64,000 nt of DNA, from the NCBI RefSeq assembly GCF_000143085.1, contig NC_014315.1, positions 310,001-374,000 of the forward strand, read 5' to 3'. The translations under genes and the position numbers were made by a program. The stretch is from Nitrosococcus watsonii C-113 (GTDB lineage Bacteria > Pseudomonadota > Gammaproteobacteria > Nitrosococcales > Nitrosococcaceae). Below the pieces are notes generated by a model. It saw only the letters and a list, made by a program, of their open reading frames with translations. It had not been told where the DNA came from and did no database searches. Below are positions 19,787 to 33,774 of this stretch, one piece after another (within the stretch, counting starts at the first letter, position 1; the number at the start of each line of letters is the position of its first letter).

Positions 19787-21646
19787 CTAGCGAGCGTACT
19801 TTTGCTCGGCCCCCGGAACGTACACCTCCACCGGAGTCATGCCCAGGTTCAGGCCCAAGGGGGTGACTTCCAGATTGCGCACCCGCTGGTCCACAAATAC
19901 CAATGATTTACGCCGCATTAGAAAAGTATAGGGTTGGTCTTCATATAAAATACGCTCGCAGGCCCGCCATAGGGGCATGCGCTCGCTTTCATTCACGGTT
20001 GCCCGCGCTTTCTCGATAAGCTGGTCCAGCTCTGGATTTTGGTAAGTAATAAAATTATCGCCGCCAGCTAGGGTTTGGCTGCTGTGGAACATTTGGTAGA
20101 TATCGATTTCGACTCCGCTCGTCCAGCCCAGCATAATGGCGTCGAAGTTCTTTTTGTTGATCCGATCCAGCATGACCGACCATTCGGTGGGCTTGGGCTC
20201 AAGCAAAATCCCGGCCCGGGCGTACAGATCCTTGAGAAACAGTACCAAGCGGCGAGTATCATCGGCATCCTGGAAAAACACCAACTCAAAGCGGAAAGGT
20301 TGGCCGCTGGCATCTTCCAGAACCCCGTCTCCGTCCCGGTCAGTGTAGCCCGCTTGCTCCAATAGAGACTTGGCTTTGGTTAGATCGAAGGGCCGGGGAG
20401 CGAGAGCGGGATCATGCTGGGGGCTGTCGGGATTGAACGGACTGACCGCCGGTTCCCCATGACCCAGCATGATCTGCTCGATCATGCTGGCGCGGTCAGT
20501 AAGAAAGGTCATGGCTTGGCGGACCCGCTGATCGGCAAAGCGGGTAGGCTTGCCGTTTCGCTCCTGGTTCCAGGCGATATAGCTATAGCCCGCGGCGGGG
20601 CTCCGATACTCAAAATGCTGGGTGCGCGCCGCCAACGCCTGATCTTCCAGCAGTTTTTGATACTCTAGCGGACGGGCGCTGTAGAGATCAATATCCCCAT
20701 TGCGGAAGGTAGTCAGGCGGGCGCTGTCATTAACGATAACCTTCCATAGTAGCTTGTCGAAAGGAGGCTGCACCGGTCCCCAGTAACGGGGGTTACGTTC
20801 CAACTCCACCAGACCCTGATCCGGAGTCCAGCCTTTAGGATCTGGGAGGCGGTAAGGACCCGAGCCCAGCAATAGGCCCTTGGACTGGTTAAAGCTTTCC
20901 GGTTGTTCCAAATAAGGTTCGTAAAAATGCTGGGGCAAGATGGCTAGGCCGCCGGCCAGAGCCAGGCTATTAAAGTAAGGCTCCTTAAATTTGAACTCCA
21001 CCTGGTAGGGATCAAGGGCGGCGACTCGCTCAATCTTTTCATAATAAGCCCGTTCCCGGGGCGCGGCAATGGCCGGATTCATGATAAAAGAGAAAGAGAA
21101 AGCCACGTCCTCGGCGGTAAGAGGCTGGCCATCGGAGAATGTGAGCCCTTTCCGCAGGCGGAAACGGAAAGTCAGCCCATCTTCGCTGATCTCCCAATCG
21201 CGGGCTAGCAAACCTTGCCATTCCAGAGTCTCTGGGTGACGCGTCAGCAGGGATTCCAACACGTAGCCCTGAACGTCAGCGGCATAGGCATCGGTGGAGA
21301 CCAGGGGCGTCAAGGTCTTCAGCCCCGCGCCAAAAGCTTGCACGAACCAGTCGCCAGGATGGTAATCAGGCTGCTGGGTAGCGGCGTAGGCGCGCTGGAA
21401 TGCCAGGGGAATAGTTTCTGCGTCTTGCTTCTCGGCGGGCGCCAAGGTAAGCCCGTTGCGGCCTGGGCTATGTAGCAGATCGCGCAGCCCGCGCAAATCC
21501 CGAGCCTGTTCGGTCAGAGTCTGCTCTATTTCGCTGAGCTTAAGCCATTGCCGATCAACCATGTACATGGCGAGCAGAATGAGCACAGCTAACAGGCTCA
21601 GGAATAGAAGCAGGAAAAAATCTTTGACCGTAAATCGTCGTGCCAT
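19787..21646 (-). CDS. Membrane-anchored family-5 peptide-binding protein (YejA-like)
   Basis: A solute-binding protein of 619 residues (SBP family 5: LLARDWEISEDGLTFRFRLR, LTAEDVAFSF, …LDQLIEKARAT). A long transmembrane helix (about 10-28) is followed by a coiled-coil-like stretch (LSEIEQTLTEQARDLRGLRD) in place of a cleavable signal with an Ala-X-Ala site or a lipobox. It is therefore likely tethered to the inner membrane. It is the first gene of the operon and lies 17 bp before the YejB-like permease. Confidence 0.88.
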   Translation of the reverse strand: MARRFTVKDFFLLLFLSLLAVLILLAMYMVDRQWLKLSEIEQTLTEQARDLRGLRDLLHSPGRNGLTLAPAEKQDAETIPLAFQRAYAATQQPDYHPGDWFVQAFGAGLKTLTPLVSTDAYAADVQGYVLESLLTRHPETLEWQGLLARDWEISEDGLTFRFRLRKGLTFSDGQPLTAEDVAFSFSFIMNPAIAAPRERAYYEKIERVAALDPYQVEFKFKEPYFNSLALAGGLAILPQHFYEPYLEQPESFNQSKGLLLGSGPYRLPDPKGWTPDQGLVELERNPRYWGPVQPPFDKLLWKVIVNDSARLTTFRNGDIDLYSARPLEYQKLLEDQALAARTQHFEYRSPAAGYSYIAWNQERNGKPTRFADQRVRQAMTFLTDRASMIEQIMLGHGEPAVSPFNPDSPQHDPALAPRPFDLTKAKSLLEQAGYTDRDGDGVLEDASGQPFRFELVFFQDADDTRRLVLFLKDLYARAGILLEPKPTEWSVMLDRINKKNFDAIMLGWTSGVEIDIYQMFHSSQTLAGGDNFITYQNPELDQLIEKARATVNESERMPLWRACERILYEDQPYTFLMRRKSLVFVDQRVRNLEVTPLGLNLGMTPVEVYVPGAEQKYAR

Positions 21647-22093: not shown

Positions 22094-22109
22094 GGGCATA
22101 CTCCTTGCT
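22094..22109 (+). promoter_or_regulatory. Sigma-54 (-24/-12) promoter
   Basis: GGGCATACTCCTTGCT matches the RpoN consensus TGGCACGNNNNTTGCW at the GG (22095-22096) and GC (22107-22108) invariant pairs. These are separated by exactly 10 bp, and the GGCA and TTGCT blocks are intact. The mismatches are the first base and two bases of the CACG block. The start site would be near 22119, about 50 nt before the ATG of the first cluster gene, which has a GGAG ribosome binding site. Confidence 0.7.
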
Positions 22110-22170
22110 ATTCATTTAATTGTGAGAACAACTCACTTTTAATCGAGATAGGCTAAAAAAGGAGAACGCC

Positions 22171-22845
22171 ATGCACGACATTGACCGCACCTTGGCTGAG
22201 TTTGAGCCTGAGATGGATGCCTATGAAACTGGACAGGAGGAATATGAATTTCAGGATGAGTATGAATTTGAGGGTCTGGATACTGAGGCCGTGTTCGATG
22301 AAGCAGAAGAAATGGAGCTCGCCGCCGAGCTGCTAGGGGTTACCGATGAGGCGGAGCTCGATCAATTCCTGGGCAACATATTTAAAAAAGTCGGGCGGAC
22401 TGTTGGCAAATTCGTGAAGAGCCCCGTGGGTAGAGCCTTAGGGGGGGCGCTTAAAGGAATTGCTAAAAAGGCCCTCCCTGTGGTGGGCGGCACCCTCGGC
22501 TCTTTTGTTCCCGGCGTTGGTACAGCGATTGGCACCACCCTGGGCAAGGCAGCCTCTAATATGTTTGAAGTCGAGCTTGAGGGACTCAGTCCTGAGGATC
22601 AGGAATTTGAGGTGGCAAAGCGCGTTGTGCAGCTTGCCGGCGCAGCCGCTAAGAATGCCGCCCTGGCCCCATCGAGCGCCAATCCCCAGGCAGTAGCGAA
22701 GATGGCGCTAACCGCCGCCGCCAAAAAGCACGCGCCGGGGTTGTTGCGGGGAGGGGCTGCTTCCTCCCCCACTGCAGCCGCAGGCAGAGGACGGAGCGGC
22801 CGTTGGATACGCCGTGGCCGCAAGATTGTCTTGCTTGGCGTGTGA
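22171..22845 (+). CDS. Unknown protein: acidic leader plus glycine-zipper hydrophobic region
   Basis: A 224-residue protein with three parts. Residues 9-62 are strongly acidic and aromatic (GQEEYEFQDEYEFEGL). Residues 68-128 are basic and Gly/Ala-rich with repeated small-residue spacing (SPVGRALGGALKGIAKK, VVGGTLGSFVPGVGTAIG), able to form a membrane-inserting helical hairpin. The tail is Ala-rich and ends in a basic RGRSGRWIRRGRKIVLLGV. There is no Sec signal. The middle resembles holin-like or bacteriocin-like glycine zippers; I know similar unannotated proteins in other proteobacteria but no function. It is first behind the sigma-54 promoter, with AAGGAG before the ATG, and 12 bp before the next gene. 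Confidence 0.75.
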   Translation: MHDIDRTLAEFEPEMDAYETGQEEYEFQDEYEFEGLDTEAVFDEAEEMELAAELLGVTDEAELDQFLGNIFKKVGRTVGKFVKSPVGRALGGALKGIAKKALPVVGGTLGSFVPGVGTAIGTTLGKAASNMFEVELEGLSPEDQEFEVAKRVVQLAGAAAKNAALAPSSANPQAVAKMALTAAAKKHAPGLLRGGAASSPTAAAGRGRSGRWIRRGRKIVLLGV

Positions 22846-22857
22846 GGCTACAAAGCC

Positions 22858-24171
22858 ATGAATTCCGCTGCTTCATGGATGCTGGCGCAGGAGGCGAAGG
22901 CACTGCTCGGCCGACTGGCGCGAATCAAGCCTTTTGCCTTGTACGAACCAATGGTGCCAGCAGCGGCGATATCGTTGCCCGCGCAAGCTGCCATTGAAAG
23001 CTATCTTGCCAATGGGCGCCGTGAACTGCGGGAACAAGTGCATACCTTTCTTGATTGGTTGCACGGATCGGGAGGTTGGCGGGCCACGCCTGCCGAGGCG
23101 CAGCGCCGGTTCACTTTGCTGCGGCTGAGGTTCAACGCGGTCCTGTCACAATTTGATATTTTCGCGGATGTGTTGACTCAGCGCAGCGAGCATGAGACCG
23201 GTATCTGGTTGTCCGGGCTCGATGTGGTGGCTGCGGATGCCCTGGCGTTGCCGGATTATTACCAAGCTCCCCCCGTGATTTGTTATTTGGATCGCGGCGC
23301 GGGCGCCGCTATTCGGCGCGCCCGCACCCGCTTGCCGGGTGGTGGTGATAATCCGGTGGCGATTATCCGCGTGCCCCGAGAACGCATGGTGGGCATCGGC
23401 GTTGCTTCTTCCTTGGTGCATGAAGTGGGACACCAAGCCGTTGCCTTACTCGATCTGGTGAAACCGCTACGGTTGGTGTTGCAGGGATTAGAGAAGGGCG
23501 GCCACCAGAAAAGTGGCGTTTGGTATTTCTGGGAACGCTGGATTTCGGAGGTGCTCGCGGACTTTTGGTCAATCGCACGGGTAGGGGTGGCGTCCACCCT
23601 AGGGCTAATAGGCGTGGTCAGCTTGCCCCAAGCTTTTGTGCACCGGGTGGGTTTGGATGATCCTCACCCGATCCCCTGGCTCCGGGTCAAGCTGAGCTGC
23701 GCCCTAGGAAAGGCTCTCTACCCCCATCCCCAGTGGGAAGAACTGAGCAAGCTCTGGGAATCTTTCTATCCTCTCGTTGGGTTGGAGGAAGAAAAGCGGT
23801 GGTTATTGACCCTGCTGGATAGAAGCATTCCGGATTTTCTTGAGGTCTTGCTCAACTATCGACCCCAGGCATTGGGCGGGGCCGCTCTTCCCGAGATCAT
23901 GGAGATTGGAGAACGTCAACCCAGGCATCTTACCAAGTATTACCAAGCCTGGCGCAAGTCACCAGCGCAAATGGGCAAAGCGCCGCCCTCCCTGGTATTT
24001 GCCGCGGTTGGCCAGGCCAAGATAGAGGGAAAGCTGGGTCCGGAAGAGGAAAGCCAGATTCTGGCCAAGCTCCTGACTCAATGGGCGCTGCGCAGCACCC
24101 TGGATAGCGCTGCGAGCTGCGCCGCCGCTCTGCCCAGGACACGGGCTGTCGCGCCGGCAACCTATAACTGA
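22858..24171 (+). CDS. Unknown protein with HEXXH-type metallopeptidase motif
   Basis: A 437-residue protein with HEVGH at 188-192 inside a helix (SSLVHEVGHQAVALLD). About 40 residues later comes WISEVLADFWSIA, in which Glu231 could be the third zinc ligand and Asp235 a supporting residue. That is the arrangement of gluzincin peptidases. I cannot assign a MEROPS family. There is no signal peptide or clear membrane anchor, so a cytosolic role such as processing one of the other cluster products is possible. It lies between the zipper protein and the orphan protein, 24 bp before the latter. Confidence 0.75.
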   Translation: MNSAASWMLAQEAKALLGRLARIKPFALYEPMVPAAAISLPAQAAIESYLANGRRELREQVHTFLDWLHGSGGWRATPAEAQRRFTLLRLRFNAVLSQFDIFADVLTQRSEHETGIWLSGLDVVAADALALPDYYQAPPVICYLDRGAGAAIRRARTRLPGGGDNPVAIIRVPRERMVGIGVASSLVHEVGHQAVALLDLVKPLRLVLQGLEKGGHQKSGVWYFWERWISEVLADFWSIARVGVASTLGLIGVVSLPQAFVHRVGLDDPHPIPWLRVKLSCALGKALYPHPQWEELSKLWESFYPLVGLEEEKRWLLTLLDRSIPDFLEVLLNYRPQALGGAALPEIMEIGERQPRHLTKYYQAWRKSPAQMGKAPPSLVFAAVGQAKIEGKLGPEEESQILAKLLTQWALRSTLDSAASCAAALPRTRAVAPATYN

Positions 24172-24195
24172 CTTTAATATATTAAGGAGATCGCC

Positions 24196-25857
24196 ATGGC
24201 TAATAATGAAATTACGGGTGATGTTACCTATACGCCCCAAGAAGCGCCTAAAGAGGCACGCAGAGGGACATTAAGAGGAACAATAAATATTAGCGGGGAT
24301 GCTGCAAGCATAATTCGGAATGCGGTGGAAGACTCTACTAAGGTCACCTTACAGCGAACCGCCGCCGCGCCGACTGAAGATCAACCCCTGTGGGTGGCGA
24401 TTCGCAACCGCACTCAAGCGATTGGCTTCAACCGTTATCATAATTTTATTGATAGGGTCTTATGCGAGGGAGAACAGGCCAGCGGTCAGGAAGGCTATGG
24501 ATCTCCTTCAGTTACAGATAACCGCGTGAGCCTCGCATCTCGGCCAACCATCCATGGGGTAGATGCCTACTCCCTACTCAAGTTGGCCACGGATGCTTTT
24601 CTCATTTTTGAGTGCGGTGTCAGGATTAGCAACGCTGAATCATTCAACGCTGCCGCCGAAAGCAACCGTTTAGAACAGCCTGTTACCATTGATAGCGTTC
24701 GGAATCAACTCAGTAACTTTTATCTTACCGGCGCCAATCAAAATGTATTACCTTATCTGGATCGTATTGTCAGGCAGATTGTCGGGCTTGATGCAACTCG
24801 GCAAGCAGAGCGCCTCCCTTACTGCGAAGCCATATTACAGCATCGGCTTACCTGCCCCAGCCTGCTGGAGCTGATTTGGTCCTATTGGCATGAAGAAGGC
24901 ATGCTGGTGCAGACTCTAAACGCCATTGCCTTGCGTTTCCAGAATCGGCGCGGTCAGGCACGGGACCCCTTGATAAGTTTGGAATTGGATCCCCTGCGCC
25001 CCCTGAACAATCTGCTGTGGGGTTTTGTTCAGGACGAATATAACCGACTGAGCGTACGGCGGCGCGCCTATGAATATGACCACCACTATGGATTTGCGCT
25101 GGTGGGCAAGGCCGTTAGCGATTTTCATCCCGTTGATAGCCGCTCCAAGTTTCTGGAAGCCTTCCACAACTTGCTTTACCGCACTGCCCTGTTCTACAAG
25201 GACGATGACGATACTACCATCATTGCCGATGCCTTTGCGCTGCTTAACGCCCTGCGGGAAGTGCATCTCATTCTGGCCGAAGGCGCCCATAACCAGTTCG
25301 GAGATCTGCCCTGGACAGCCCGCCGGGAAATGTTGATTATGCAGTGGTTGCTGGCTCGGCCAGAAATCAAGGAATTCCTGCGAGGGCGCTATATGGTGCC
25401 CTATCAGGAGCCCTGGATGGGGGCGGTGGATGCCATGAAACGGCTGCAAGGCTGGAGCGATGTCACCGTTACCCATTTCCACGAGCTGGCGATTTATGGT
25501 GAACAAATCTTGCTCTCCATCCGCTATGGAGACTGGATTGATGTCAATGACCAGCAGCAGGCGCGCAATTGGGCCCGCTATTGGCGACCGGAGATTCAGC
25601 GCTACATCCATGCGTATCTGGCCACGACCGGCGTGGACCTGTCGGTGGAGATGACCGATACTCGGCAAGCGGCGGAGCGTTTTCTCCAACCTTCGGTTCA
25701 TTTGCAAAAGCGCCTCGTGGCGCAACGGGGCAGGCATGCCTTGCCATCGGCAATGACGACCGCCAGAGTCCTGCCCTCCGAGGTTTTTGGCTATGCGGAG
25801 CTACCAGCGCCGGTTCATGGTCGTGGTCGCTTGCTCAAGCATAGAGCGGAGGATTAG
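24196..25857 (+). CDS. Unknown protein (553 residues)
   Basis: I do not recognise this protein. AAGGAG precedes the ATG by 6 nt and the frame is clearly coding. The first 60 residues are polar and low in complexity (DVTYTPQEAPKEARRGTLRG). The rest is mostly helical, with many aromatic residues and repeated Tyr/Trp/Arg-rich segments (FNRYHNFIDRVLCEG, ARNWARYWRPEIQRYIHAY). There is no signal peptide or transmembrane helix. It sits in the middle of the sigma-54 cluster, 3 bp before the TTG of the PLP enzyme, so it is probably translated with it. A structural or scaffold role is possible but unsupported. Confidence 0.7.
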   Translation: MANNEITGDVTYTPQEAPKEARRGTLRGTINISGDAASIIRNAVEDSTKVTLQRTAAAPTEDQPLWVAIRNRTQAIGFNRYHNFIDRVLCEGEQASGQEGYGSPSVTDNRVSLASRPTIHGVDAYSLLKLATDAFLIFECGVRISNAESFNAAAESNRLEQPVTIDSVRNQLSNFYLTGANQNVLPYLDRIVRQIVGLDATRQAERLPYCEAILQHRLTCPSLLELIWSYWHEEGMLVQTLNAIALRFQNRRGQARDPLISLELDPLRPLNNLLWGFVQDEYNRLSVRRRAYEYDHHYGFALVGKAVSDFHPVDSRSKFLEAFHNLLYRTALFYKDDDDTTIIADAFALLNALREVHLILAEGAHNQFGDLPWTARREMLIMQWLLARPEIKEFLRGRYMVPYQEPWMGAVDAMKRLQGWSDVTVTHFHELAIYGEQILLSIRYGDWIDVNDQQQARNWARYWRPEIQRYIHAYLATTGVDLSVEMTDTRQAAERFLQPSVHLQKRLVAQRGRHALPSAMTTARVLPSEVFGYAELPAPVHGRGRLLKHRAED

Positions 25858-25860
25858 CTT

Positions 25861-26979
25861 TTGAGCCGAGGGTCTTCTTCCATGCTTGACTTCACCTCTG
25901 TCCTCTATCTGGGACTGCGTCATTCCAGCGGGGTGCTGCGCCCGTGGACGCAGCTTACTTCCGGCAAGCCGGCGGCCCTGATTACGCCAGCAGCCCAGCA
26001 CCGCGTAGCTGGGGCGCTGGCTGAATTGCAGGGCTGCGAGGAGGCTACTATCGGCCCTTCCACCTTGCATCTGTTCTGGGATCTCTTTGGCATTCTGGCG
26101 AAGCAGGGCATGGCGATCTACCTGGATGGAGGCACCTATCCCATTGCCCGCTGGGGGGTAGAACGGGCGGCGGCGCGAGGTATTCCGGTGCGGCGTTTTC
26201 CTCACCGTAACCCGGAGGCTTTGCGGCGGCGCTTGAAGCAGGATAGCTCACGCGGTCTTAGGCCCCTTGTGGTCGCGGATGGCTTTTGCCCCGGTTGCGG
26301 CAAGCCAATCCCCCTTCACGCCTACTTAGAAAGCGCACGGGACTGGGGCGGCTATTTGCTCCTCGATGATACCCAGGCACTAGGCATTCTTGGCTATTCG
26401 CCCAGCTTTAGAGCACCCTACGGGCGGGAAGGAGGCGGATCGCTTCCTTGGCACCATGCCGCTGGGTCCGACGTGCTCCTGGTCAGCTCCCTAGCCAAGG
26501 GTTTTGGCGTGCCAATGGCGGTGCTGGCAGGCAGTCATGCCTTGATACGATGGTTTAAGGATAAGAGCGAGACCCGTACCCACTGTAGCCCGCCTTCAAT
26601 CGCCATCATCCATGCGGCCGAGCATGCTTTGAAGGTAAACAAAAGCTATGGGGATGGGCTGCGCCTACGTTTGGCGCGGCTCGTTCACTATTTCCGCAGC
26701 CGCCTGGCGCAGATCGGTTGGCCCACGGTAGGCGGATTGTTTCCCGTCCAAACCCTTATGCCTAAACCTACCCTTGATGCCAGGAAATTACACGAGCAAC
26801 TTCTCCGGCAAGGAATCCAAACAGTCCTTCACCGCGGTCGCAAGGAGCTTGGTGCATGTCTTAGCTTTCTGATTACCGCCCGCCACAGCCGGGGTGATAT
26901 CGACCGTGCGGCAAATGCCGTTGCGCGGTTTGCGGGGAAAAGAGACCCACAGGAGATTAGCCATGAATACTGCCTTTGA
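25861..26979 (+). CDS. PLP-dependent alpha-oxoamine synthase-like enzyme (KBL/BioF type)
   Basis: A fold-type I PLP protein of 372 residues related to 2-amino-3-ketobutyrate CoA ligase and 8-amino-7-oxononanoate synthase. LLLDDTQALGILG (Asp169/Asp170) corresponds to the DDAHxxG motif that contacts the PLP ring nitrogen, with the usual His replaced by Gln. SSLAKGFGVPMAVLAGS holds the likely PLP lysine, Lys213. CHCSPPS matches the SxPPP loop. The changed motif suggests an altered substrate. It could acylate an amino acid, but no biotin or threonine genes are nearby. The start is TTG at 25861 or ATG at 25882; the gene overlaps the next by 17 nt. Confidence 0.75.
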   Translation: MSRGSSSMLDFTSVLYLGLRHSSGVLRPWTQLTSGKPAALITPAAQHRVAGALAELQGCEEATIGPSTLHLFWDLFGILAKQGMAIYLDGGTYPIARWGVERAAARGIPVRRFPHRNPEALRRRLKQDSSRGLRPLVVADGFCPGCGKPIPLHAYLESARDWGGYLLLDDTQALGILGYSPSFRAPYGREGGGSLPWHHAAGSDVLLVSSLAKGFGVPMAVLAGSHALIRWFKDKSETRTHCSPPSIAIIHAAEHALKVNKSYGDGLRLRLARLVHYFRSRLAQIGWPTVGGLFPVQTLMPKPTLDARKLHEQLLRQGIQTVLHRGRKELGACLSFLITARHSRGDIDRAANAVARFAGKRDPQEISHEYCL

Positions 26980-29014
26980 TTTTGAAGAAGAGCCCCTGGA
27001 AGGGTTAATGGAATTCGGCCAGGAAATCTTTGATGCCGAACTCGCGGACCTTGAAGGGGAAGAAGAATTTTGGCGGGGCCGGCGTACTCCGGGCCATGTT
27101 TTAGCACGTCGCCAGCGCCCTCTACGCCTACGGCGGCCTCTTCCTTCACGGCCATCCAAAAGGTTTCCAGCACGGCCAGTAGCTACTCGCCCGCAACCGC
27201 CTAAGCGGCCTCCACCGCAGCCTCGATTTCCACATCGGCCAGCGATTATCAGGCGCAGAATAGTACCAGAGCCTGTGCCCTGCGTTTGCCCAGCCCATGG
27301 CACCGAGTTTATTCGTTGGGTGCAAAGTTCATTAAATCAAATTTTAGGCTCGCGCCTGCCAGTTAGTGGTGTTATGAATCGCGGCACGCGGGATGCGCTA
27401 CGTCAGTTTCAGAAACAGCAAGGCTTACCGGTGGATGGTATTGCCGGGCCACCCACGGAGCGCGCACTGCTTGACGCTCTAGGTGGTGGTGTTCGCGATG
27501 ACGCAGCCGGTATGGCCAAGCCGAGCGATGCTACTGAGTCGGCTGCGGATTCGGAACTGTTCGAGTATGACGCTGAAGAGCTTGAGGCGCCACTGGCGCG
27601 ACCAATGCTAGGACGCGGTTCACGTGGCGCGTCGGTGATCGAGCTACAGAAGCGCTTGAGCGCTCTTGGATTCAATCCGGGCGCCGCGGACGGGATCTTC
27701 GGCTCACGCACCGAATCCGCCGTGAGGGCGTTCCAGCATTCGCAGCGCATCACGGTAGATGGAATCGTCGGTCCTCAAACATGGAGCCGCTTGTACGGCC
27801 CTACACCGTCCCCAGTACCCTCGCCTCCTTCAGGCACGACCAGCGTCACTTGGAAGCTGCCTCCCGAGATACGAGCCGCTGGCGACGCGCAGACGGTGCG
27901 TTACGACTCACCGCCGCCCTGGGCCAACGGTGCCAACTGCACCCGCTACACAGACGGCGCTGCTGAGCTGCGGCGCTACATCAAGGCGACTTTCCCCGGT
28001 GTTAGGTTGATCGGTGGTTATAGCTGCCGTGCTAACTCGGCCACCCCCTCAGAAACTTCGGTACATGGGGTGGGGCGCGCGCTCGACATCATGATTCCTA
28101 CTGTTGGCGGGAGGGCAAATAGCGCAGTCGGCGATCCAATTGCCAATTGGCTGGTCCGAAACGCAACGGCGATCGGTGTCCAATACATCATCTGGAACCG
28201 CGTCCGCTGGAGCGGCAGCCGCACCCCACACGTGGCCGATTATGGTGGTCCCAACCCGCACATCGATCATATACACGTCGAGCTAAACCTCGATGGCGCG
28301 CGGCGCAGAACGGCGTGGTTTCAGGAGAGAGAGACCGTCACGGCATACTCTGAGCTTGCGGAAGAATTTGAATCCCTCTGGGAAAGCGAGATTAACCGAA
28401 GCAGTACCGACCATGTCCGCTGGATTCAACAATCACTCAACAAAATTATGGGATTGCGGCTAGCGGTAGATGGCATTTTGGGTCCAATGACCCGTAGTGC
28501 CGTCCGCAGTTTTCAAAGTCGCCATAGGCTGGCAGTAGATGGTATCGTTGGTCCACATACGGAACGCGCCTTAGTCGCCGCAGGTGCTGATTCACCGCCT
28601 TTCATTCCTGCGGCTGGGGGCGCGCAAGATATCGTCAACGTCCGAGGGATTCAAGTTGCGCGGCAGATTCAACCTCAGATAGCAGCATTGCTTGCAACCG
28701 CGGATGCAGATGGCATCCACCTAAGCGGTTCGGGTTATCGTTCATCCGCTCGACAGATTGGGCTTCGGCGCCAAAATTGTGGTCCCACCTATGACGATAT
28801 TTGGAAAAAGTCGCCTTCTCAATGTAGGCCACCTACGGCGATTCCAGGCCGCTCCCTGCATGAAAAGGGCTTGGCTATTGATTTTAGGTACAATGGCCAA
28901 GGTATCACCTCACGAAGTAGTCCTGGATTTATCTGGCTGTCACAAAATGCCGGCCAATTTGGATTAAAAAATCTACCCAGTGAGCCGTGGCACTGGTCAA
29001 CCACGGGGGCATGA
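26963..29014 (+). CDS. Peptidoglycan-binding protein with two M15-type peptidase domains
   Basis: A 683-residue protein starting at the ATG at 26963 (AGGAG 7 nt upstream, inside the preceding gene). In order: acidic leader (about 4-37), Arg/Pro-rich linker (40-105), PGBD1 (114-173), PGBD2 (215-278), an M15-like domain with SVHGVGRALDI (His368, Asp375) and HIDHIH (433-438), a second acidic patch (ELAEEFESLWESE), PGBD3 (482-539), then a VanY-like M15 domain with SLHEKGLAIDF (His633, Asp640) and EPWHW (His677). PGBD1 and PGBD3 are close copies, so the chain looks like a duplicated and fused unit. M15 enzymes cut D-Ala-D-Ala or L-Ala-D-Glu bonds in peptidoglycan. There is no signal peptide despite a wall substrate. 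Confidence 0.85.
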   Translation: MNTAFDFEEEPLEGLMEFGQEIFDAELADLEGEEEFWRGRRTPGHVLARRQRPLRLRRPLPSRPSKRFPARPVATRPQPPKRPPPQPRFPHRPAIIRRRIVPEPVPCVCPAHGTEFIRWVQSSLNQILGSRLPVSGVMNRGTRDALRQFQKQQGLPVDGIAGPPTERALLDALGGGVRDDAAGMAKPSDATESAADSELFEYDAEELEAPLARPMLGRGSRGASVIELQKRLSALGFNPGAADGIFGSRTESAVRAFQHSQRITVDGIVGPQTWSRLYGPTPSPVPSPPSGTTSVTWKLPPEIRAAGDAQTVRYDSPPPWANGANCTRYTDGAAELRRYIKATFPGVRLIGGYSCRANSATPSETSVHGVGRALDIMIPTVGGRANSAVGDPIANWLVRNATAIGVQYIIWNRVRWSGSRTPHVADYGGPNPHIDHIHVELNLDGARRRTAWFQERETVTAYSELAEEFESLWESEINRSSTDHVRWIQQSLNKIMGLRLAVDGILGPMTRSAVRSFQSRHRLAVDGIVGPHTERALVAAGADSPPFIPAAGGAQDIVNVRGIQVARQIQPQIAALLATADADGIHLSGSGYRSSARQIGLRRQNCGPTYDDIWKKSPSQCRPPTAIPGRSLHEKGLAIDFRYNGQGITSRSSPGFIWLSQNAGQFGLKNLPSEPWHWSTTGA

Positions 29015-29182
29015 TCATCCCTCTTGCCGATCATCCTTCCAAAGGGGGAAGGAACAATTCCTTGGGCATTAGGAATCCCCTTTGCTGTCTGCAGACGAAG
29101 GCCGGACAGCGCCAGCGTGCCCGTTCTGCTTTAATGATGGCAAGGGCTGAATAGTGTAATATAGGCATAGGGATCTACCGTC

Positions 29183-29992
29183 ATGATCATCGACTGCCAT
29201 TGCCACGCCGGTAAAGGCGATGGTCTAACTGGCCCTTGGGATACCCGGGCTTCGCTGAAAAAATATCTGCGCCGGGCGGCCCAAGCGGGCATTAAGCAAA
29301 CAGTGCTTTTAGCCGCTTTTCACTCGGATTATGAGGCGGCCAACCGGGAAGTGGCCCGAATCGTGGCTAGCCGTCCGCATCGCTTTTATGGCTTTGCCAT
29401 GGTCCATTCCCTGCGGGATCGTGGGCGCATTTACACTTTAGTCAAGTTGGCCGTCGAGCGCTATGGCTTTGTGGGCATTAAGGTGCACCGTCATGACGGG
29501 CGGATTACCCGTGAGATCTGTGAAACGGCGCAAGCGTTTGCCCTCCCGGTGCTCTATGACGTGATGGGTGAGATTTCGGTATGCGAACTGCTTGCCCGAG
29601 AATATCCCAATGTCGCGTTTATTATCCCCCACCTGGGCAGCTTTGCCGATGATTGGCGGGCCCAGCTCGCCCTGATTGACCACCTGGCGCGTTACCCCAA
29701 TATCTATACTGATACCTCCGGGGCACGCCGGTTTGATCTCCTGGAAGAAGCGGTACGGCGAGCCGGAGCGGAGAAAATTCTGTTTGGCTCCGACGGTCCG
29801 TGGTTGCATCCTGGGCTTGAATTGGCCAAAGTTCGCGCTTTGAGTTTGCCGTTGCCCAAGGAGCAATGGGTGCTAGGTGGTAATTTTTTGCGTCTCATCG
29901 CTCGCGTGCGAGCAGAGCCAAGGGGAGCCCCTCTTGTCTCGACTCATCCGCCGTTGCTCCAAGCGGAAGGATTATCCGATCCCTGGCTATAG
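29183..29992 (+). CDS. Amidohydrolase-2 family metal-dependent hydrolase
   Basis: A TIM-barrel protein of 269 residues of the COG2159 kind. The N-terminal metal motif is DCHCHAG, the middle shows GIKVHRHDG and IIPHLGSF, and the end has KILFGSDGPWLHP with the conserved Asp. Relatives hydrolyse or decarboxylate ring acids; the substrate here is unknown. It is 168 bp after the peptidoglycan-binding gene on the same strand and converges on the sigma-54 activator gene. It may be read through from the sigma-54 promoter or have its own. Confidence 0.8.
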   Translation: MIIDCHCHAGKGDGLTGPWDTRASLKKYLRRAAQAGIKQTVLLAAFHSDYEAANREVARIVASRPHRFYGFAMVHSLRDRGRIYTLVKLAVERYGFVGIKVHRHDGRITREICETAQAFALPVLYDVMGEISVCELLAREYPNVAFIIPHLGSFADDWRAQLALIDHLARYPNIYTDTSGARRFDLLEEAVRRAGAEKILFGSDGPWLHPGLELAKVRALSLPLPKEQWVLGGNFLRLIARVRAEPRGAPLVSTHPPLLQAEGLSDPWL

Positions 29993-29993
29993 A

Positions 29994-30052
29994 AACTTTC
30001 CGAAGAAAGTTACCGGGCCCTTCCTTTCAAGGGGGGGAAATTTTTTGCCCGG
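29994..30052 (+). terminator. Possible terminator between convergent genes
   Basis: AACTTTC-CGAA-GAAAGTT (29994-30011) forms a tetraloop hairpin. CCGGGC (30013-30018) then pairs with GCCCGG (30047-30052) around an inner CCCTT/AAGGG stem and a run of six T. It follows the amidohydrolase stop by a few bases and overlaps the end of the activator gene. Confidence 0.4.
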
Positions 30053-31439
30053 ACACTAAGCTGTCCGGGGTTAGACGATGATTAGCCCGGCGAAGCTGCA
30101 AGGCTCGATCAGTGATGCACAGTTTGCGGGCCGCCCGTTGGAGATTGCCCTCCTCGTCTCGTAATGCGACGCGGATGGCGGTTTCTGTGGCAATGCGGCT
30201 GATCTCCTTGAGCCCTACGCCTAGATCAAGAGCGTGATGAATGGCCTGTTCAAAATGGACATCGTACCAATCACCTTGTTCCGATTCTTCAGTAGGCCTT
30301 TCATCCTGGGGGAGAGCGCCTAAAGTGATGGGACCCGGTCCCACATGACGGGAACCTAGAAGTACCGCCAGTTGTTTGAGTTCGCGAATATTGCCGGGAT
30401 AATTGCGTCGCAAAAGATGTTGGCGTACGGGTTCGTCCAGTTCTATGGGCGCTTTATCAGGCCGCAGTTCGTTTAAAAAATGGTGTGTCAGGGGGAGGAT
30501 GTCCTCCTTGCGTTCTCGTAGTGGGGGCAGCCGGCACACCCAGGCGGCAATGCGATAATATAAGTCAGAACGGAATTTGCCCTGTTCCACTGCCTGGGCC
30601 AGATCCTTGTTAGTCGCGCATACTAGGCGAAAATCGGTATGTTGCCAGGAGCTTCCTCCTACCCGTTTGTAAGTGCGTTCTTGGATCACGCGTAGCAATT
30701 GAACTTGAAGACCCAGGGGTAGTTCCCCGATTTCGTCCAGGAATAAGGTTCCTTCACTCGCTAGGGCAAAGGCTCCATCGCGAGGAGAGATGGCCCCAGT
30801 AAAGGCTCCCCGCTCATGGCCAAAGAACTCGCTGCCGGCAAGTTCGGGCACAATGGTACCGCAATCCAAAACTACTAGCTCCTTTTTCTTTTCCCGTGGA
30901 TTTAGCGTGTGAATTAAGCGTGCTATTAACTCCTTTCCCGTTCCAGTCTCGCCCATGAGCAATACCGAGGCATCCGTAAAATGGGCTGCCTCAATGACTT
31001 GGCGTAATACGGAGCGCCAAGCTAGGCTCCGCCCAAGCAGGTTTTTTTGGACTAACGGGCTCTCCAAAATCTGGTCTACCGCCGCCCACCGTCTGAGGCG
31101 AGAAATAATTTGAGTGAGAGGCTCCGTAGAATGTTGCCAGCAAAAAACATCCGCGGCCCCCGCACGGAGCAAACGCCAAGCGTGACTATCCGCCATGGCA
31201 ATGGGTGAAACAGCAATGGCCAGTACCTGTTCTTGACCGCGGTGGCTAACTTTACTTAGGAGTTCGCAAAGCTGTGGGGTAAATTTCTTGAAGAAAAGCA
31301 CGCCTGTCCCCTTCGGGGCTTCAAGATTAAGTGTTCGCGATCGAATGCCCGCTTGCATCAATGCTTCAACTAACGCGGTTGGAATTTGGTTATCGTTTTG
31401 CGCTAACGAATGAACCCATACAGACATATCCCAAGCCAT
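30027..31439 (-). CDS. Sigma-54-dependent transcriptional activator with degenerate receiver-like domain
   Basis: A 470-residue bacterial enhancer-binding protein. The AAA+ domain (about 135-370) has Walker A GETGTGKE (163-170), the sigma-54-contacting GAFTGA (211-216), Walker B TLFLDEIGE and arginine-finger region FRSDLYYRI. The C-terminus has a Fis-type helix-turn-helix (GNLQRAARKLCITDRALQLR). Residues 1-125 resemble a receiver domain in outline (ending AWRLLRAGAADVFCW…LTQIISRLRRW) but lack an evident phospho-accepting Asp and the late Lys. Control is therefore probably not by simple phosphorylation. Its closeness to the RpoN promoter and paired dyads upstream of 22171 suggests it controls that cluster. 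Confidence 0.9.
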   Translation of the reverse strand: MAWDMSVWVHSLAQNDNQIPTALVEALMQAGIRSRTLNLEAPKGTGVLFFKKFTPQLCELLSKVSHRGQEQVLAIAVSPIAMADSHAWRLLRAGAADVFCWQHSTEPLTQIISRLRRWAAVDQILESPLVQKNLLGRSLAWRSVLRQVIEAAHFTDASVLLMGETGTGKELIARLIHTLNPREKKKELVVLDCGTIVPELAGSEFFGHERGAFTGAISPRDGAFALASEGTLFLDEIGELPLGLQVQLLRVIQERTYKRVGGSSWQHTDFRLVCATNKDLAQAVEQGKFRSDLYYRIAAWVCRLPPLRERKEDILPLTHHFLNELRPDKAPIELDEPVRQHLLRRNYPGNIRELKQLAVLLGSRHVGPGPITLGALPQDERPTEESEQGDWYDVHFEQAIHHALDLGVGLKEISRIATETAIRVALRDEEGNLQRAARKLCITDRALQLRRANHRLTPDSLVSGQKISPP

Positions 31440-32413: not shown

Positions 32414-33400
32414 TCAAGACGTGGTTTTATCTAGGATCGTAAGGAATGAGCCGAAGCTAAGGGCAGGTGGTGGGCCTGGCGTTTCTAGCAGGCGATAGAC
32501 CCGGCCCCGGTTGATGCTGGCAGCCGCCTGTTCTGAGCCCCCCAGAATATACAAATGAGAGCCGGTGCTGATAGCGGGCATCCCGTGGAGCGCCATGGGC
32601 AAGGGAGGACCGGGTTGCCATTTTCCGGATAGATTTCCCAAGATTTCCGAGTTGCTCAAGGTTGTTCGTCCAGTCATGATGACCTCGCCGCCAAAAACAT
32701 AGATTTTCCCTTGATGAACCGCTGCGCCATGTCCGCCCCGGGCGGTATTCAAGGGGGGGCCTTCTTGCCAAGTATCGGTTGCGGGATCATAAATTTCCAC
32801 TGAGCGTAGTTCACCGACACCCTGATAACGGCCGCCAATGGCGGCGATCTTATCTTTGAAAACCACGCTGCGGATATGCTCCCGGCGCTGCTTCATCGCC
32901 TTTAGGAAAGTCCAGACGTCTCGTTGGGGGTCATAGCGGAGTAATCTTCCGCTGGGGCCTTTGCCGCCTACGACATAGATAAAATCCCCCATTGAGACGG
33001 CACCTCCCGCGTAACGAGGTTCAGGCAGGGGGGTTAAAGTTCGCCAACGATTGTTGGGGGGATCGTAGACCCAAGCAGTTGCCATTGGGGACCAGTCTGG
33101 ATCGCCGCCCCCAAAAACATAGATTTTCCCCTGATGGGCTGTGGCCATGAGGTGATGGCGAGGGGCTGGCAGTGGCGCCAGTTGCTCCCAGCTATCAGTG
33201 GTAGCATCATATACTTCAAACTGGCGCTGACCACCTAAGCCTCCTGGTGCATATATTTTACCATCCAGATAGGCTGCTGCCATTTCCGAACGGTGGGTGG
33301 GCATGGGATGTAGTTGTTGCCATTGCTCTGAGGCGGAATAGGCTAGAAATGATAGGCTCAGCAAGAGAAGTGAGCTTAGGTGAATTTTATTAAATCTCAT
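32414..33400 (-). CDS. Secreted kelch-repeat protein
   Basis: A protein of about 328 residues with a Sec signal peptide (MRFNKIHLSSLLLLSLSFLAYSA) followed by six kelch repeats, each with the GKIYVFGG-type strand and downstream W (…DSWEQL, …NRWRTL, …DVWTFL, …DTWQEG). It should fold as a beta-propeller in the periplasm or outside the cell. The ligand is unknown. Overall it resembles the NanM/galactose-oxidase-like propeller group, but sialic acid genes are absent. A Met nine codons earlier is possible; the one at 33400 fits the signal peptide best. Confidence 0.85.
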   Translation of the reverse strand: MRFNKIHLSSLLLLSLSFLAYSASEQWQQLHPMPTHRSEMAAAYLDGKIYAPGGLGGQRQFEVYDATTDSWEQLAPLPAPRHHLMATAHQGKIYVFGGGDPDWSPMATAWVYDPPNNRWRTLTPLPEPRYAGGAVSMGDFIYVVGGKGPSGRLLRYDPQRDVWTFLKAMKQRREHIRSVVFKDKIAAIGGRYQGVGELRSVEIYDPATDTWQEGPPLNTARGGHGAAVHQGKIYVFGGEVIMTGRTTLSNSEILGNLSGKWQPGPPLPMALHGMPAISTGSHLYILGGSEQAAASINRGRVYRLLETPGPPPALSFGSFLTILDKTTS

Positions 33401-33774
33401 TTGGGCGCACCAATTGTGTGGATACATTTTTTAGTACATCAGTTTTGTATTCAAAACACCGCTGTAATCATGTGCGTGTGGCCCCGTTATTCTCATCTAT
33501 CTTGATGAGTACTTGGACAGAACTTTAAGCGGTGGGCATCTGATGAGCAATAGGCCACTCCTGAATAATATATAGTCAGTTTATAGGAGCTTGGCCATAT
33601 TGATTTAGGTTTGTCTTTGCTAACGAGTGCTCTCCCAGTTTAGGGATACGAGGAGGGTATATTTGCATTATCCATCAGGCTTTCTAGGTAGGATGGCTGT
33701 CGGCTCCCCTAGAATGGCTGCCTTAAGGGCCACTACCCAGCTGCAGCATTGAATGCGAGTAAGGACTTCATTGA
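33401..33774. other. Intergenic region, nothing recognised
   Basis: Around 370 bp with stops in all frames, no tRNA-like fold and no strong hairpin with a T tract. It separates two minus-strand genes and probably holds the kelch gene promoter. Confidence 0.4.

What the first reader, a model, noticed from the sequence alone, without database searches (positions are those of the whole stretch)
22171..29014. Undescribed five-gene cluster: glycine-zipper protein, HEXXH protein, orphan, PLP enzyme and a double-M15 peptidoglycan hydrolase
Five plus-strand genes are packed with gaps of 12, 24 and 3 bp and one overlap, behind a single predicted promoter. The set joins a potential membrane-inserting protein, a putative protease, an acyl-amino-acid-type PLP enzyme and a wall-cutting enzyme. 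None has a Sec signal. The first and last products share an acidic, Glu/Phe-rich leader. This could be a system that makes and matures a peptide or particle and acts on cell walls (own or foreign), released by lysis or a non-Sec route. Composition is from the sequence; the joint function is inference.
Basis: partly seen in the sequence, partly recalled or inferred. Interest (0 to 1): 0.85.

Follow-up and report, generated by a model that had tools for sequence, protein, structure and literature searches.

The report
Unnamed mobile effector operon, swappable enzymes
A gene set that recurs in the same order in many unrelated bacteria carries its own genetic switch, three undescribed core proteins and a slot in which different wall-, protein- or lipid-cutting enzymes, many with a similar acidic front end, are swapped in and out, which looks like an undescribed way of deploying enzymes outside the cell.

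Summary
The five genes are real and belong to a larger unit (22094-31439): sigma54-type promoter, G1 (glycine zipper), G2 (HEXXH), G3 (orphan), PLP enzyme, leader-bearing wall hydrolase ("cargo"), amidohydrolase, convergent sigma54 activator. A scan with G3 gave 168 relatives; the best 80 were fetched. Of 60 loci with enough flank, G1 is in 60, G2 60, activator 57, PLP 52, amidohydrolase 49. Separate searches with G2 (398 genomes) and G1 (396) hit the same four genomes, the window's own and three others. Hosts span Proteobacteria, Acidobacteria, Nitrospira, Chloroflexi, Actinobacteria, Myxococcota and more. The slot after PLP is polymorphic (amidases, M15, M74, M23, muramidases, trypsin-like proteases, lipase, GIY-YIG-like). 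By a simple rule 36 of 92 slot proteins carry an acidic-aromatic leader (flanking genes 14 of 580); eight contain a G1 module. Window G2 and G3 reach no family cut-off and have no clear PDB match; G2 has an M48-type zinc site. My reading: a mobile, sigma54-switched effector operon, working like polymorphic toxins but with an undescribed core, no systematic immunity gene, unknown export. Recurrence, order, leader, swapping and promoter are shown; export, processing and targets are inferred. The particle idea is unsupported.

The parts
22094..22109 (+). sigma54-type -24/-12 promoter element (GGGCATACTCCTTGCT, GG-N10-GC)
   Evidence: score 9.9 of 11.5, below 10 (first position and the sixth and seventh differ from the recalled consensus); elements scoring >=9.5 precede the first G1 in 50 of 67 loci vs 45 of 624 control genes, >=10 in 41 of 67 vs 8 of 624
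22171..22845 (+). G1: acidic leader, glycine-zipper core with net charge +10 (residues 69-130), conserved C-terminal GRWxRRGxxIVLxG tail
   Evidence: (tail pattern in 112 of 119 members)
22858..24171 (+). G2: HEXXH(188-192)...E231xxAD235 protein with an M48-type zinc site, no Pfam family
   Evidence: H188, E189, H192, E231, D235 in 76 of 77 rows; the other is cut there
24196..25857 (+). G3: all-helical orphan core protein; 10 of 47 relatives carry a carboxypeptidase-regulatory-like domain
25882..26979 (+).
   Evidence: catalytic Lys motif in 60 of 60
26963..29014 (+). cargo: leader-bearing peptidoglycan hydrolase (leader 26963-27076, then RGRR and Pro/Arg-rich linker)
27623..27793 (+). PG_binding_1 domain (best of three stretches)
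   Evidence: residues 244-300 of the 706-aa frame
28652..28999 (+). VanY (M15) domain of the cargo
   Evidence: residues 587-702 of the 706-aa frame, E 1.2e-11
29183..29992 (+). AMH: amidohydrolase_2 family enzyme, part of the conserved unit
   Evidence: in 49 of 60 loci with enough flank
30027..31439 (-). S54: sigma54 activator (AAA+, GAFTGA), convergent, part of the conserved unit
   Evidence: in 57 of 60 loci with enough flank

Best explanation
The region is one copy of a horizontally moved, sigma54-switched effector operon. Its own AAA+ activator turns on a -24/-12 promoter in front of G1. G1, G2 and G3 are a constant core. The slot behind the PLP gene holds interchangeable enzymes ('cargos'), many marked by an acidic aromatic leader, an RxR step and a Pro/Arg-rich linker. 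Inferred working: G3 is the helical hub that gathers leader-bearing proteins; G2, a zincin with an M48-type site, cuts or unfolds at the leader; the G1 glycine-zipper proteins (acidic mask, cationic membrane-active core) help the enzymes out of the producer or into another cell; the enzymes then act on peptidoglycan, proteins, lipids or nucleic acid, most likely of competitors. PLP enzyme and amidohydrolase are proposed to make or remove a small molecule that tunes or modifies the process. In the window the carried effector is a PG-binding M15-type wall hydrolase.
For: Conserved unit: family counts in 81 loci, fixed order, G1 60, G2 60, S54 57, PLP 52, AMH 49 of 60 loci with enough flank. Separate searches: G2 in 4 of 398 and G1 in 4 of 396 sampled genomes of the phylum, the same four (the window's own and three others), next to G3; the three others also have AMH and S54, two of three PLP. 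Switch: promoter enrichment, GA[FY]TGA in 61 of 65 activators. Cargo polymorphism: of 86 scanned, PG_binding_1 41, Trypsin_2 10, Amidase_2 8, OmpA 8, M74 5, VanY 3, M23 2, GIY-YIG 2, single GH25, muramidase, papain, LCAT and others (examples 58, 59, 91). Leader: 36 of 92 cargos and 71 of 117 G1 vs 14 of 580 flanking genes, 6 of 80 G3, 2 of 64 S54 and none of 198 G2, PLP, AMH and M20; acidic-then-RxR-then-basic layout in 24 of 92 vs 5 of 598, four of these five lying inside the operon of their locus. One system: eight cargos contain a G1 module, five over at least 179 of its 182 positions, three over 154-157. Swapping: Nitrosomonas-type cargos L066 and L053 are 56-66% identical in their first three 60-residue blocks and 58-75% in the G1 module but 21-30% in the C-terminal blocks and 25% between PG-binding and G1. 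Transfer: the G3 tree mixes phyla (15 label changes, least possible 9) and puts the window beside Nitrosomonas halophila (support 83) in a four-row set (96) with an alphaproteobacterium on a long branch; G3 is not found in the three other genomes of the genus.
Against: No export machine or membrane channel is encoded and no experiment shows export. Immunity genes, expected for toxins, are not systematic: 36 of 54 loci leave no gap of 250 bp or more between G3 and AMH (though 14 of the other 18 have a small ORF in the gap). The leader tests are home-made and catch only 36, 24 or 23 of 92 cargos; some of the 92 are misread frames. The window's own promoter scores just under 10. G2's M48 likeness rests on the motif and a middling structural score (Z 7.8 and 7.0, rmsd 5.4 and 5.0 A). 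The tree tool warns that several label changes are no proof of transfer and that long branches meet near the window's group. Why a PLP enzyme and an amidohydrolase belong is unexplained; they were not found in 8 and 11 of the 60 loci, and three actinobacterial loci lack PLP, AMH and S54.
Confidence: 0.5

Rival explanations
1. Self-lysis cassette: G1 acts like a holin, the wall hydrolases like endolysins, and the switched-on cell opens itself, releasing enzymes to its surroundings.
For: The window's cargo matches endolysin families and G1 weakly an endolysin and tape-measure family in PHROGs; G1 has a glycine-zipper, cationic core; no Sec-like starts; no immunity genes as a rule.
Against: Cargos also include protease, lipase-like and GIY-YIG-like proteins, some without a recognised wall-cutting domain; G2, G3 and the leader have no evident role in lysis; no phage record holds a G3 relative.
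Confidence: 0.2
2. Peptide-maturation system: G1 is the precursor of a cationic membrane-active peptide, freed from its acidic leader by G2 and tailored by the PLP enzyme and amidohydrolase; wall hydrolases assist its release.
For: G1 charge layout (leader median -0.29 per residue, 49-residue core +5, tail +5 in the 87 of 119 members that could be parsed); several G1 copies in many loci (119 in 70 loci).
Against: The G1 protein is conserved down to its C-terminal tail, unlike a throw-away precursor; it occurs as a module inside 499-794 aa enzymes; cargos share the leader style.
Confidence: 0.13
3. Envelope repair or remodelling operon under sigma54 control, acting on the producer's own wall, with no antagonism.
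For: Wall-binding and wall-cutting domains are the commonest; no systematic immunity genes; the activator's AAA+ part matches RtcR/PspF-like models.
Against: Cargo variability and module swapping and sporadic distribution (4 of 398 genomes, the window's included) are unlike housekeeping; proteases, lipase and GIY-YIG-like domains do not fit.
Confidence: 0.1
4. The cargos are loaded by a known machine (contractile injection system, T6SS or other) encoded elsewhere.
For: OmpA, PG-binding and zincin domains occur in PVC-type effectors in the survey PMC3482391 (passages and section 36 seen); G120 and G386 have T6SS VipA, G304 a gp19-type tube protein.
Against: The window's genome has no match to gp19 or VipA; neither is shared by the four genomes; hosts include both proteobacteria and actinobacteria. 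Other machines were not searched.
Confidence: 0.06
5. Unrelated neighbours by chance.
For: None found.
Against: G1, G2 and G3 together in 60 of 60 loci with enough flank; same four genomes in separate searches.
Confidence: 0.01

Closest known systems
[quoted passage not shown] 2012, PMC3482391)
   Same: Constant front part with swapped C-terminal enzyme domains; PG-binding, OmpA and zincin-type domains also occur there (passages).
   Different: Undescribed G1-G2-G3 core, acidic/RxR/Pro-Arg leader, own sigma54 switch; no systematic immunity gene, no recognised trafficking domain. 'sigma54' and 'Nitrosomonas' do not occur in the part of that paper held for reading (300,000 of 357,715 characters); 'GIY-YIG' occurs once in the whole, not in the held part.
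Holin-endolysin lysis cassettes
   Same: Membrane-active small protein next to wall hydrolases with PG_binding_1; PHROG endolysin matches.
   Different: Cargos are not only lysins; extra conserved core, regulator, PLP enzyme and amidohydrolase; no G3 in phage records.
Contractile injection systems with diverse effectors (eCIS/PVC, T6SS)
   Same: Diverse effectors tied to one delivery system.
   Different: No conserved apparatus genes beyond the six families among the recurrent neighbours and no gp19 or VipA match in the window's genome.
M48 metalloproteases (BepA; for G2)
   Same: HEXXH plus ExxAD motif (family motif recalled); the two BepA entries are the only zincins among the rows listed.
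   Different: No M48 match in Pfam for 37 members and none in the PDB sequence search; fold match middling.
Alpha-oxoamine synthases (BioF/Kbl; for the PLP enzyme)
   Same: Fold family and catalytic lysine motif.
   Different: Far below every subfamily cut-off; DDTQ in place of the usual DDAH motif (the usual form is recalled).
Glycine-zipper contact-dependent bacteriocins (Cdz; recalled, not tested)
   Same: Glycine-zipper proteins made for antagonism.
   Different: Not compared here; no ABC exporter among the recurrent families of the unit.

Membership tests
Polymorphic toxin system | constant N-terminal part with interchangeable C-terminal enzyme domains | tested here: met
Polymorphic toxin system | cognate immunity gene next to the toxin | tested here: not met
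   36 of 54 loci have no gap >=250 bp between G3 and AMH; 14 of the other 18 have a small ORF there, not examined; 168 bp between cargo and AMH in the window. Immunity genes of 140 aa or more would be counted as cargo
Polymorphic toxin system | recognised trafficking domain or secretion signal | tested here: inconclusive
   none seen in Pfam scans; the leader is a candidate signal
Contractile injection system (eCIS, T6SS) | tube/sheath genes in the unit or host | tested here: not met
   window genome 0 matches to PF06841 and PF05591; other sheath and tube families not searched
M48 zincins (G2) | HEXXH and downstream ExxAD | tested here: met
   H188, E189, H192, E231, D235 in 76 of 77 rows, the other cut there; Ala of ExxAD in 70, Ser 5, Pro 1
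M48 zincins (G2) | sequence-profile match to the family | tested here: not met
   no M48 family in Pfam for 37 members
M48 zincins (G2) | fold | tested here: inconclusive
   BepA 6sar Z 7.8 (rmsd 5.4, 167 aligned) and 6ait Z 7.0 (rmsd 5.0, 167 aligned); Foldseek none at E <= 0.001
Alpha-oxoamine synthase | PLP fold with catalytic lysine | tested here: met
   Pfam and NCBIfam matches and lysine motif in 60 of 60
Alpha-oxoamine synthase | membership of a named subfamily (bioF, Kbl, SPT, CqsA-like) | tested here: not met
   all NCBIfam scores far below cut-off
sigma54 enhancer-binding proteins | AAA+ domain with GAFTGA | tested here: met
   (GA[FY]TGA 61 of 65, GAFTGS 1, other letters 3)
sigma54 enhancer-binding proteins | controls the -24/-12 promoter of this operon | not testable with these tools
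   promoter element enriched; binding and activation need experiments
Phage lysis cassette | phage relatives or phage neighbourhood | tested here: inconclusive
   G3: no match in 50,697 phage records; G2, G3 no PHROG; but cargo matches PHROG endolysins and G1 weakly
GIY-YIG nuclease (some cargos, not the window's) | curated family match | tested here: inconclusive
   2 of 86 members at E <= 0.001, L014 below gathering score; home-built profile recruits 22 loci; L045, L066, L075 no Pfam GIY-YIG match at 0.01
any family | export of the cargo, cleavage of the leader | not testable with these tools
   needs experiments

The most novel reading that the evidence does not exclude
G1-G2-G3 is a previously undescribed protein-export or delivery apparatus of both diderm and monoderm bacteria that recognises an acidic-aromatic/RxR leader, is switched by a dedicated sigma54 activator in most hosts, and delivers exchangeable effector enzymes without any membrane channel of a known type, the glycine-zipper protein itself being the carrier.
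Probability: 0.25. Interest if true: 0.95.

Novelty: categorically new. Interest (0 to 1): 0.82.

Why it matters
Two core proteins well conserved across phyla (47% or more identity to the window for G3 and 49% or more for G2 in non-redundant sets drawn from the best 80 loci; about 43-50% in the three genomes found separately) have no family name, yet in every locus with enough flank they travel with each other and with G1, and mostly with a regulator and a rotating set of enzymes. If this is a delivery system it would be a new class, present in nitrifiers, methanotrophs and soil bacteria, with leader, core and switch defined well enough to test. If it is a lysis or peptide system it would still be a widespread undescribed one. 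The swappable slot is also a source of new wall-cutting enzymes.

Tried and rejected
Contractile-injection idea (my first lead): tested in four genomes with two markers, not met in the window's host. Phage origin: no G3 match among phage records, no viral-library match at E <= 0.001; weak G1 and clear cargo PHROG rows exist. Defence system: PADLOC gave AAA+-part matches to RtcR/PspF-like regulators (and one weak row) for the activator and nothing for the other six proteins. Fold of G3: no PDB match at E <= 0.001, best VIA Z 3.0 with rmsd 9.4 and 6.3 A; this does not show a new fold. Fold of G2 by Foldseek: none at E <= 0.001. G2-G3 fusion suspected in Myxococcus (L072): rejected, the long frame was an artefact; G2 lies separately upstream. 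Empty-site comparison in other Nitrosococcus-genus genomes: the flanking genes are far apart in the three relatives, so no clean empty site. The activator has only AAA+-range relatives there (best 42-45% identity). RNA elements: no Rfam match in the window at gathering scores; no tRNA.

Literature: ten full-text searches, most asking for several terms at once and so narrow, showed no paper describing the set; the library lacks most subscription papers. Seen: PMC3482391 (search listing, passages, section 36) and PMC12419801 (search listing, passages). No other paper was opened.

Limits of the counts: the neighbourhood set is the best 80 of 168 relatives found with G3, plus the window; it is redundant (24 of 80 tree rows are Oxalobacteraceae). 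ORFs were called by a simple script, so some 'cargo' and 'flank' entries are misread frames (G3 of L038 was lost that way). Of 92 cargo-slot ORFs, three under 200 aa and three others that I judged doubtful were left out, so 86 went to the Pfam tally. The G3 profile used 47 of 80 members (48 after the redundancy cut, L072 dropped as misread), the G2 profile 37 of 77 (39, L003 and L010 dropped as cut), the G1 profile 51 of 119 (60, nine dropped). A first motif pattern for G2 missed 26 of 77 rows because it was too strict; the aligned columns were then counted. The -24/-12 consensus, its weights and the leader rules are my own or recalled.

Full report
What is there. The five ORFs are as described, with small corrections to two starts. 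G1 (224 aa) has an acidic leader and a glycine-zipper core; G2 (437 aa) holds HEVGH; G3 (553 aa) reaches no family cut-off in Pfam or NCBIfam; the PLP protein is alpha-oxoamine-synthase-like; the last protein has three PG_binding_1 stretches and a VanY domain over the cut-off.

Recurrence. A scan of genome contigs with G3 gave 168 relatives; the best 80 were fetched. Clustering of all ORFs of these 80 loci and the window gives families present in: G3 80, G2 77, G1 70 (119 members), activator 65, PLP 60, amidohydrolase 55 of 81 loci; the next most frequent family is in 17. Of the 60 loci with at least 3.5 kb before and 7.5 kb after G3, G1 is found in 60, G2 in 60, the activator in 57, PLP in 52, the amidohydrolase in 49. 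The order is nearly fixed: G1 (one to three copies), G2, G3, PLP, variable genes, amidohydrolase, and the activator, usually convergent. To avoid the bias of seeding with G3, I searched samples of the window's phylum with G2 (4 of 398 genomes) and G1 (4 of 396): the same four genomes, the window's own and three others, at the same loci. The three others have G1, G2, G3, amidohydrolase and activator in this order, and two of three PLP.

Spread. Of 59 genomes of relatives only the window's own has G3; three other genomes of the genus lack a match. The G3 tree of 80 rows needs 15 phylum changes where 9 is the least possible (shuffled mean 22.7); the window sits beside Nitrosomonas halophila (support 83) in a four-row set (96) that includes an alphaproteobacterium, and two methanotrophs lie within Nitrosomonas. 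The tool warns that this is no proof of transfer and that two long branches meet in the window's set. Paired identities of the parts correlate across loci (r 0.72 to 0.94), as expected of parts inherited together. Four plasmid records carry G3, no phage record does. The host is probably Nitrosococcus watsonii, judged from contig sizes that I recall; no tool names it.

Switch. A sigma54 -24/-12 element scoring 10 or more of 11.5 lies before the first G1 in 41 of 67 loci, against 8 of 624 control genes; at 9.5 or more 50 of 67 against 45 of 624. The window's element (22094-22109) scores 9.9. The activators keep GA[FY]TGA in 61 of 65; three have other letters there and one GAFTGS. The activator was not found in three actinobacterial loci.

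The slot. Between PLP and the amidohydrolase lie different enzymes. Of 86 scanned, PG_binding_1 is in 41, trypsin-like 10, amidase 8, OmpA 8, M74 5, VanY 3, M23 2, GIY-YIG 2, and single hits to GH25, muramidase, papain, LCAT, M35, M10, beta-lactamase2 and others (single proteins). A home-built profile finds a GIY-YIG-like domain in 22 loci, while L045, L066 and L075 have no curated GIY-YIG match, so this label is provisional. An acidic-aromatic leader is found by a simple rule in 36 of 92 cargos, 71 of 117 G1, 14 of 580 flanking genes, 6 of 80 G3 and 2 of 64 activators; an acidic stretch, then RxR, then a basic Pro/Arg-rich stretch in 24 of 92 cargos, 4 of 118 G1 and 5 of 598 flanking genes, four of these five lying inside the operon of their locus (L017, L058, L073, L078). 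A stricter motif (hydrophobic-x-hydrophobic ... P-hydrophobic) is in 23 of 92 against 5 of 591, two of the five again in the cargo position. None of the 36 leader-bearing cargos has a Sec-like hydrophobic start by the hydropathy rule.

Parts belong together physically. Eight of the 92 cargos contain a G1 module, five over at least 179 of 182 profile positions and three (L053, L060, L062) over 154-157, without the tail. Their layout is leader, PG-binding, GIY-YIG-like or other domain, G1, then a variable end. L066 and L053 stay 56-66% identical in front and 58-75% in the G1 blocks while the middle and the end fall to 21-30%; the end is an amidase in L053 and L060, another sequence in L031, L035, L064 and L066, and missing in L062 and L075. 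This is the pattern of polymorphic toxins, but immunity genes are not systematic.

Core proteins. G2's conserved residues include both histidines and the glutamate of HEXXH, and E231 and D235 of an ExxAD motif, in 76 of 77 rows, the other being cut there: the M48-type zinc site (family motif recalled). Its AlphaFold model is confident (pLDDT 88.8); Foldseek finds nothing at E <= 0.001; in the second look the only zincins listed are two BepA structures, Z 7.8 (rmsd 5.4 A, 167 residues) and 7.0 (rmsd 5.0 A, 167 residues), tied with helical bundles that match its first 107 residues. G3's model is all-helical (pLDDT 74.7, pTM 0.76) without any clear match; ten of 47 relatives carry a carboxypeptidase-regulatory-like domain, a fold usual outside the cytosol (recalled). 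G1 keeps a GRWxRRGxxIVLxG-type tail in 112 of 119 members; of 87 members that could be parsed the leader is negative in 85, the core positive in 86, the tail positive in 83.

Mechanism and certainty. Shown: a conserved, probably mobile, sigma54-linked unit with a constant core and an exchangeable, often leader-bearing enzyme. Inferred: export or delivery, leader recognition by G3, cutting by G2, membrane role of G1, antagonism as purpose, role of PLP enzyme and amidohydrolase. I give the whole chain 0.5, self-lysis 0.2, peptide maturation 0.13, own-envelope remodelling 0.1, a known secretion machine 0.06.

Novelty. Ten paper searches showed no description (listed under Tried and rejected). The nearest described kind is the polymorphic toxin system (PMC3482391), whose immunity feature is not met here. 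I rate it categorically new as a set of parts, while its way of working may prove to be a variant of effector delivery.

Noticed in passing
L045:13374-14024, L034, L057, L068, L078 and others ('post' G1 copies); some cargos of L027, L012: Extra G1 copies behind the PLP gene and some cargos start with a CxCxxC-type cysteine motif instead of the usual MHDIDR leader. Meaning unknown.
   Followed up: no
L025 and L081 (actinobacteria): Two actinobacterial loci keep an activator with an intact GAFTGA motif although sigma54 is generally thought absent from that phylum (recalled); in three other actinobacterial loci it was not found.
   Followed up: partly
L021, L023, L035, L053, L060, L068, L079: An M20-type peptidase-like gene (family f13, 7 loci) sits between the cargo position and the amidohydrolase; its label is from sequence look and recall, no scan was run.
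   Followed up: no
G304 locus L086: The G2 relative has one in-frame TGA by the tool's count.
   Followed up: no
window 19787-21646 and 32414-33427: The genes flanking the unit are conserved in the three other genomes of the genus but lie far apart there, so the unit sits at a rearranged junction.
   Followed up: partly
L038: In Massilia atriviolacea the G3 region was read by my ORF caller as a long minus-strand frame, although tblastn sees G3 on the + strand; probably an artefact of GC-rich DNA.
   Followed up: partly
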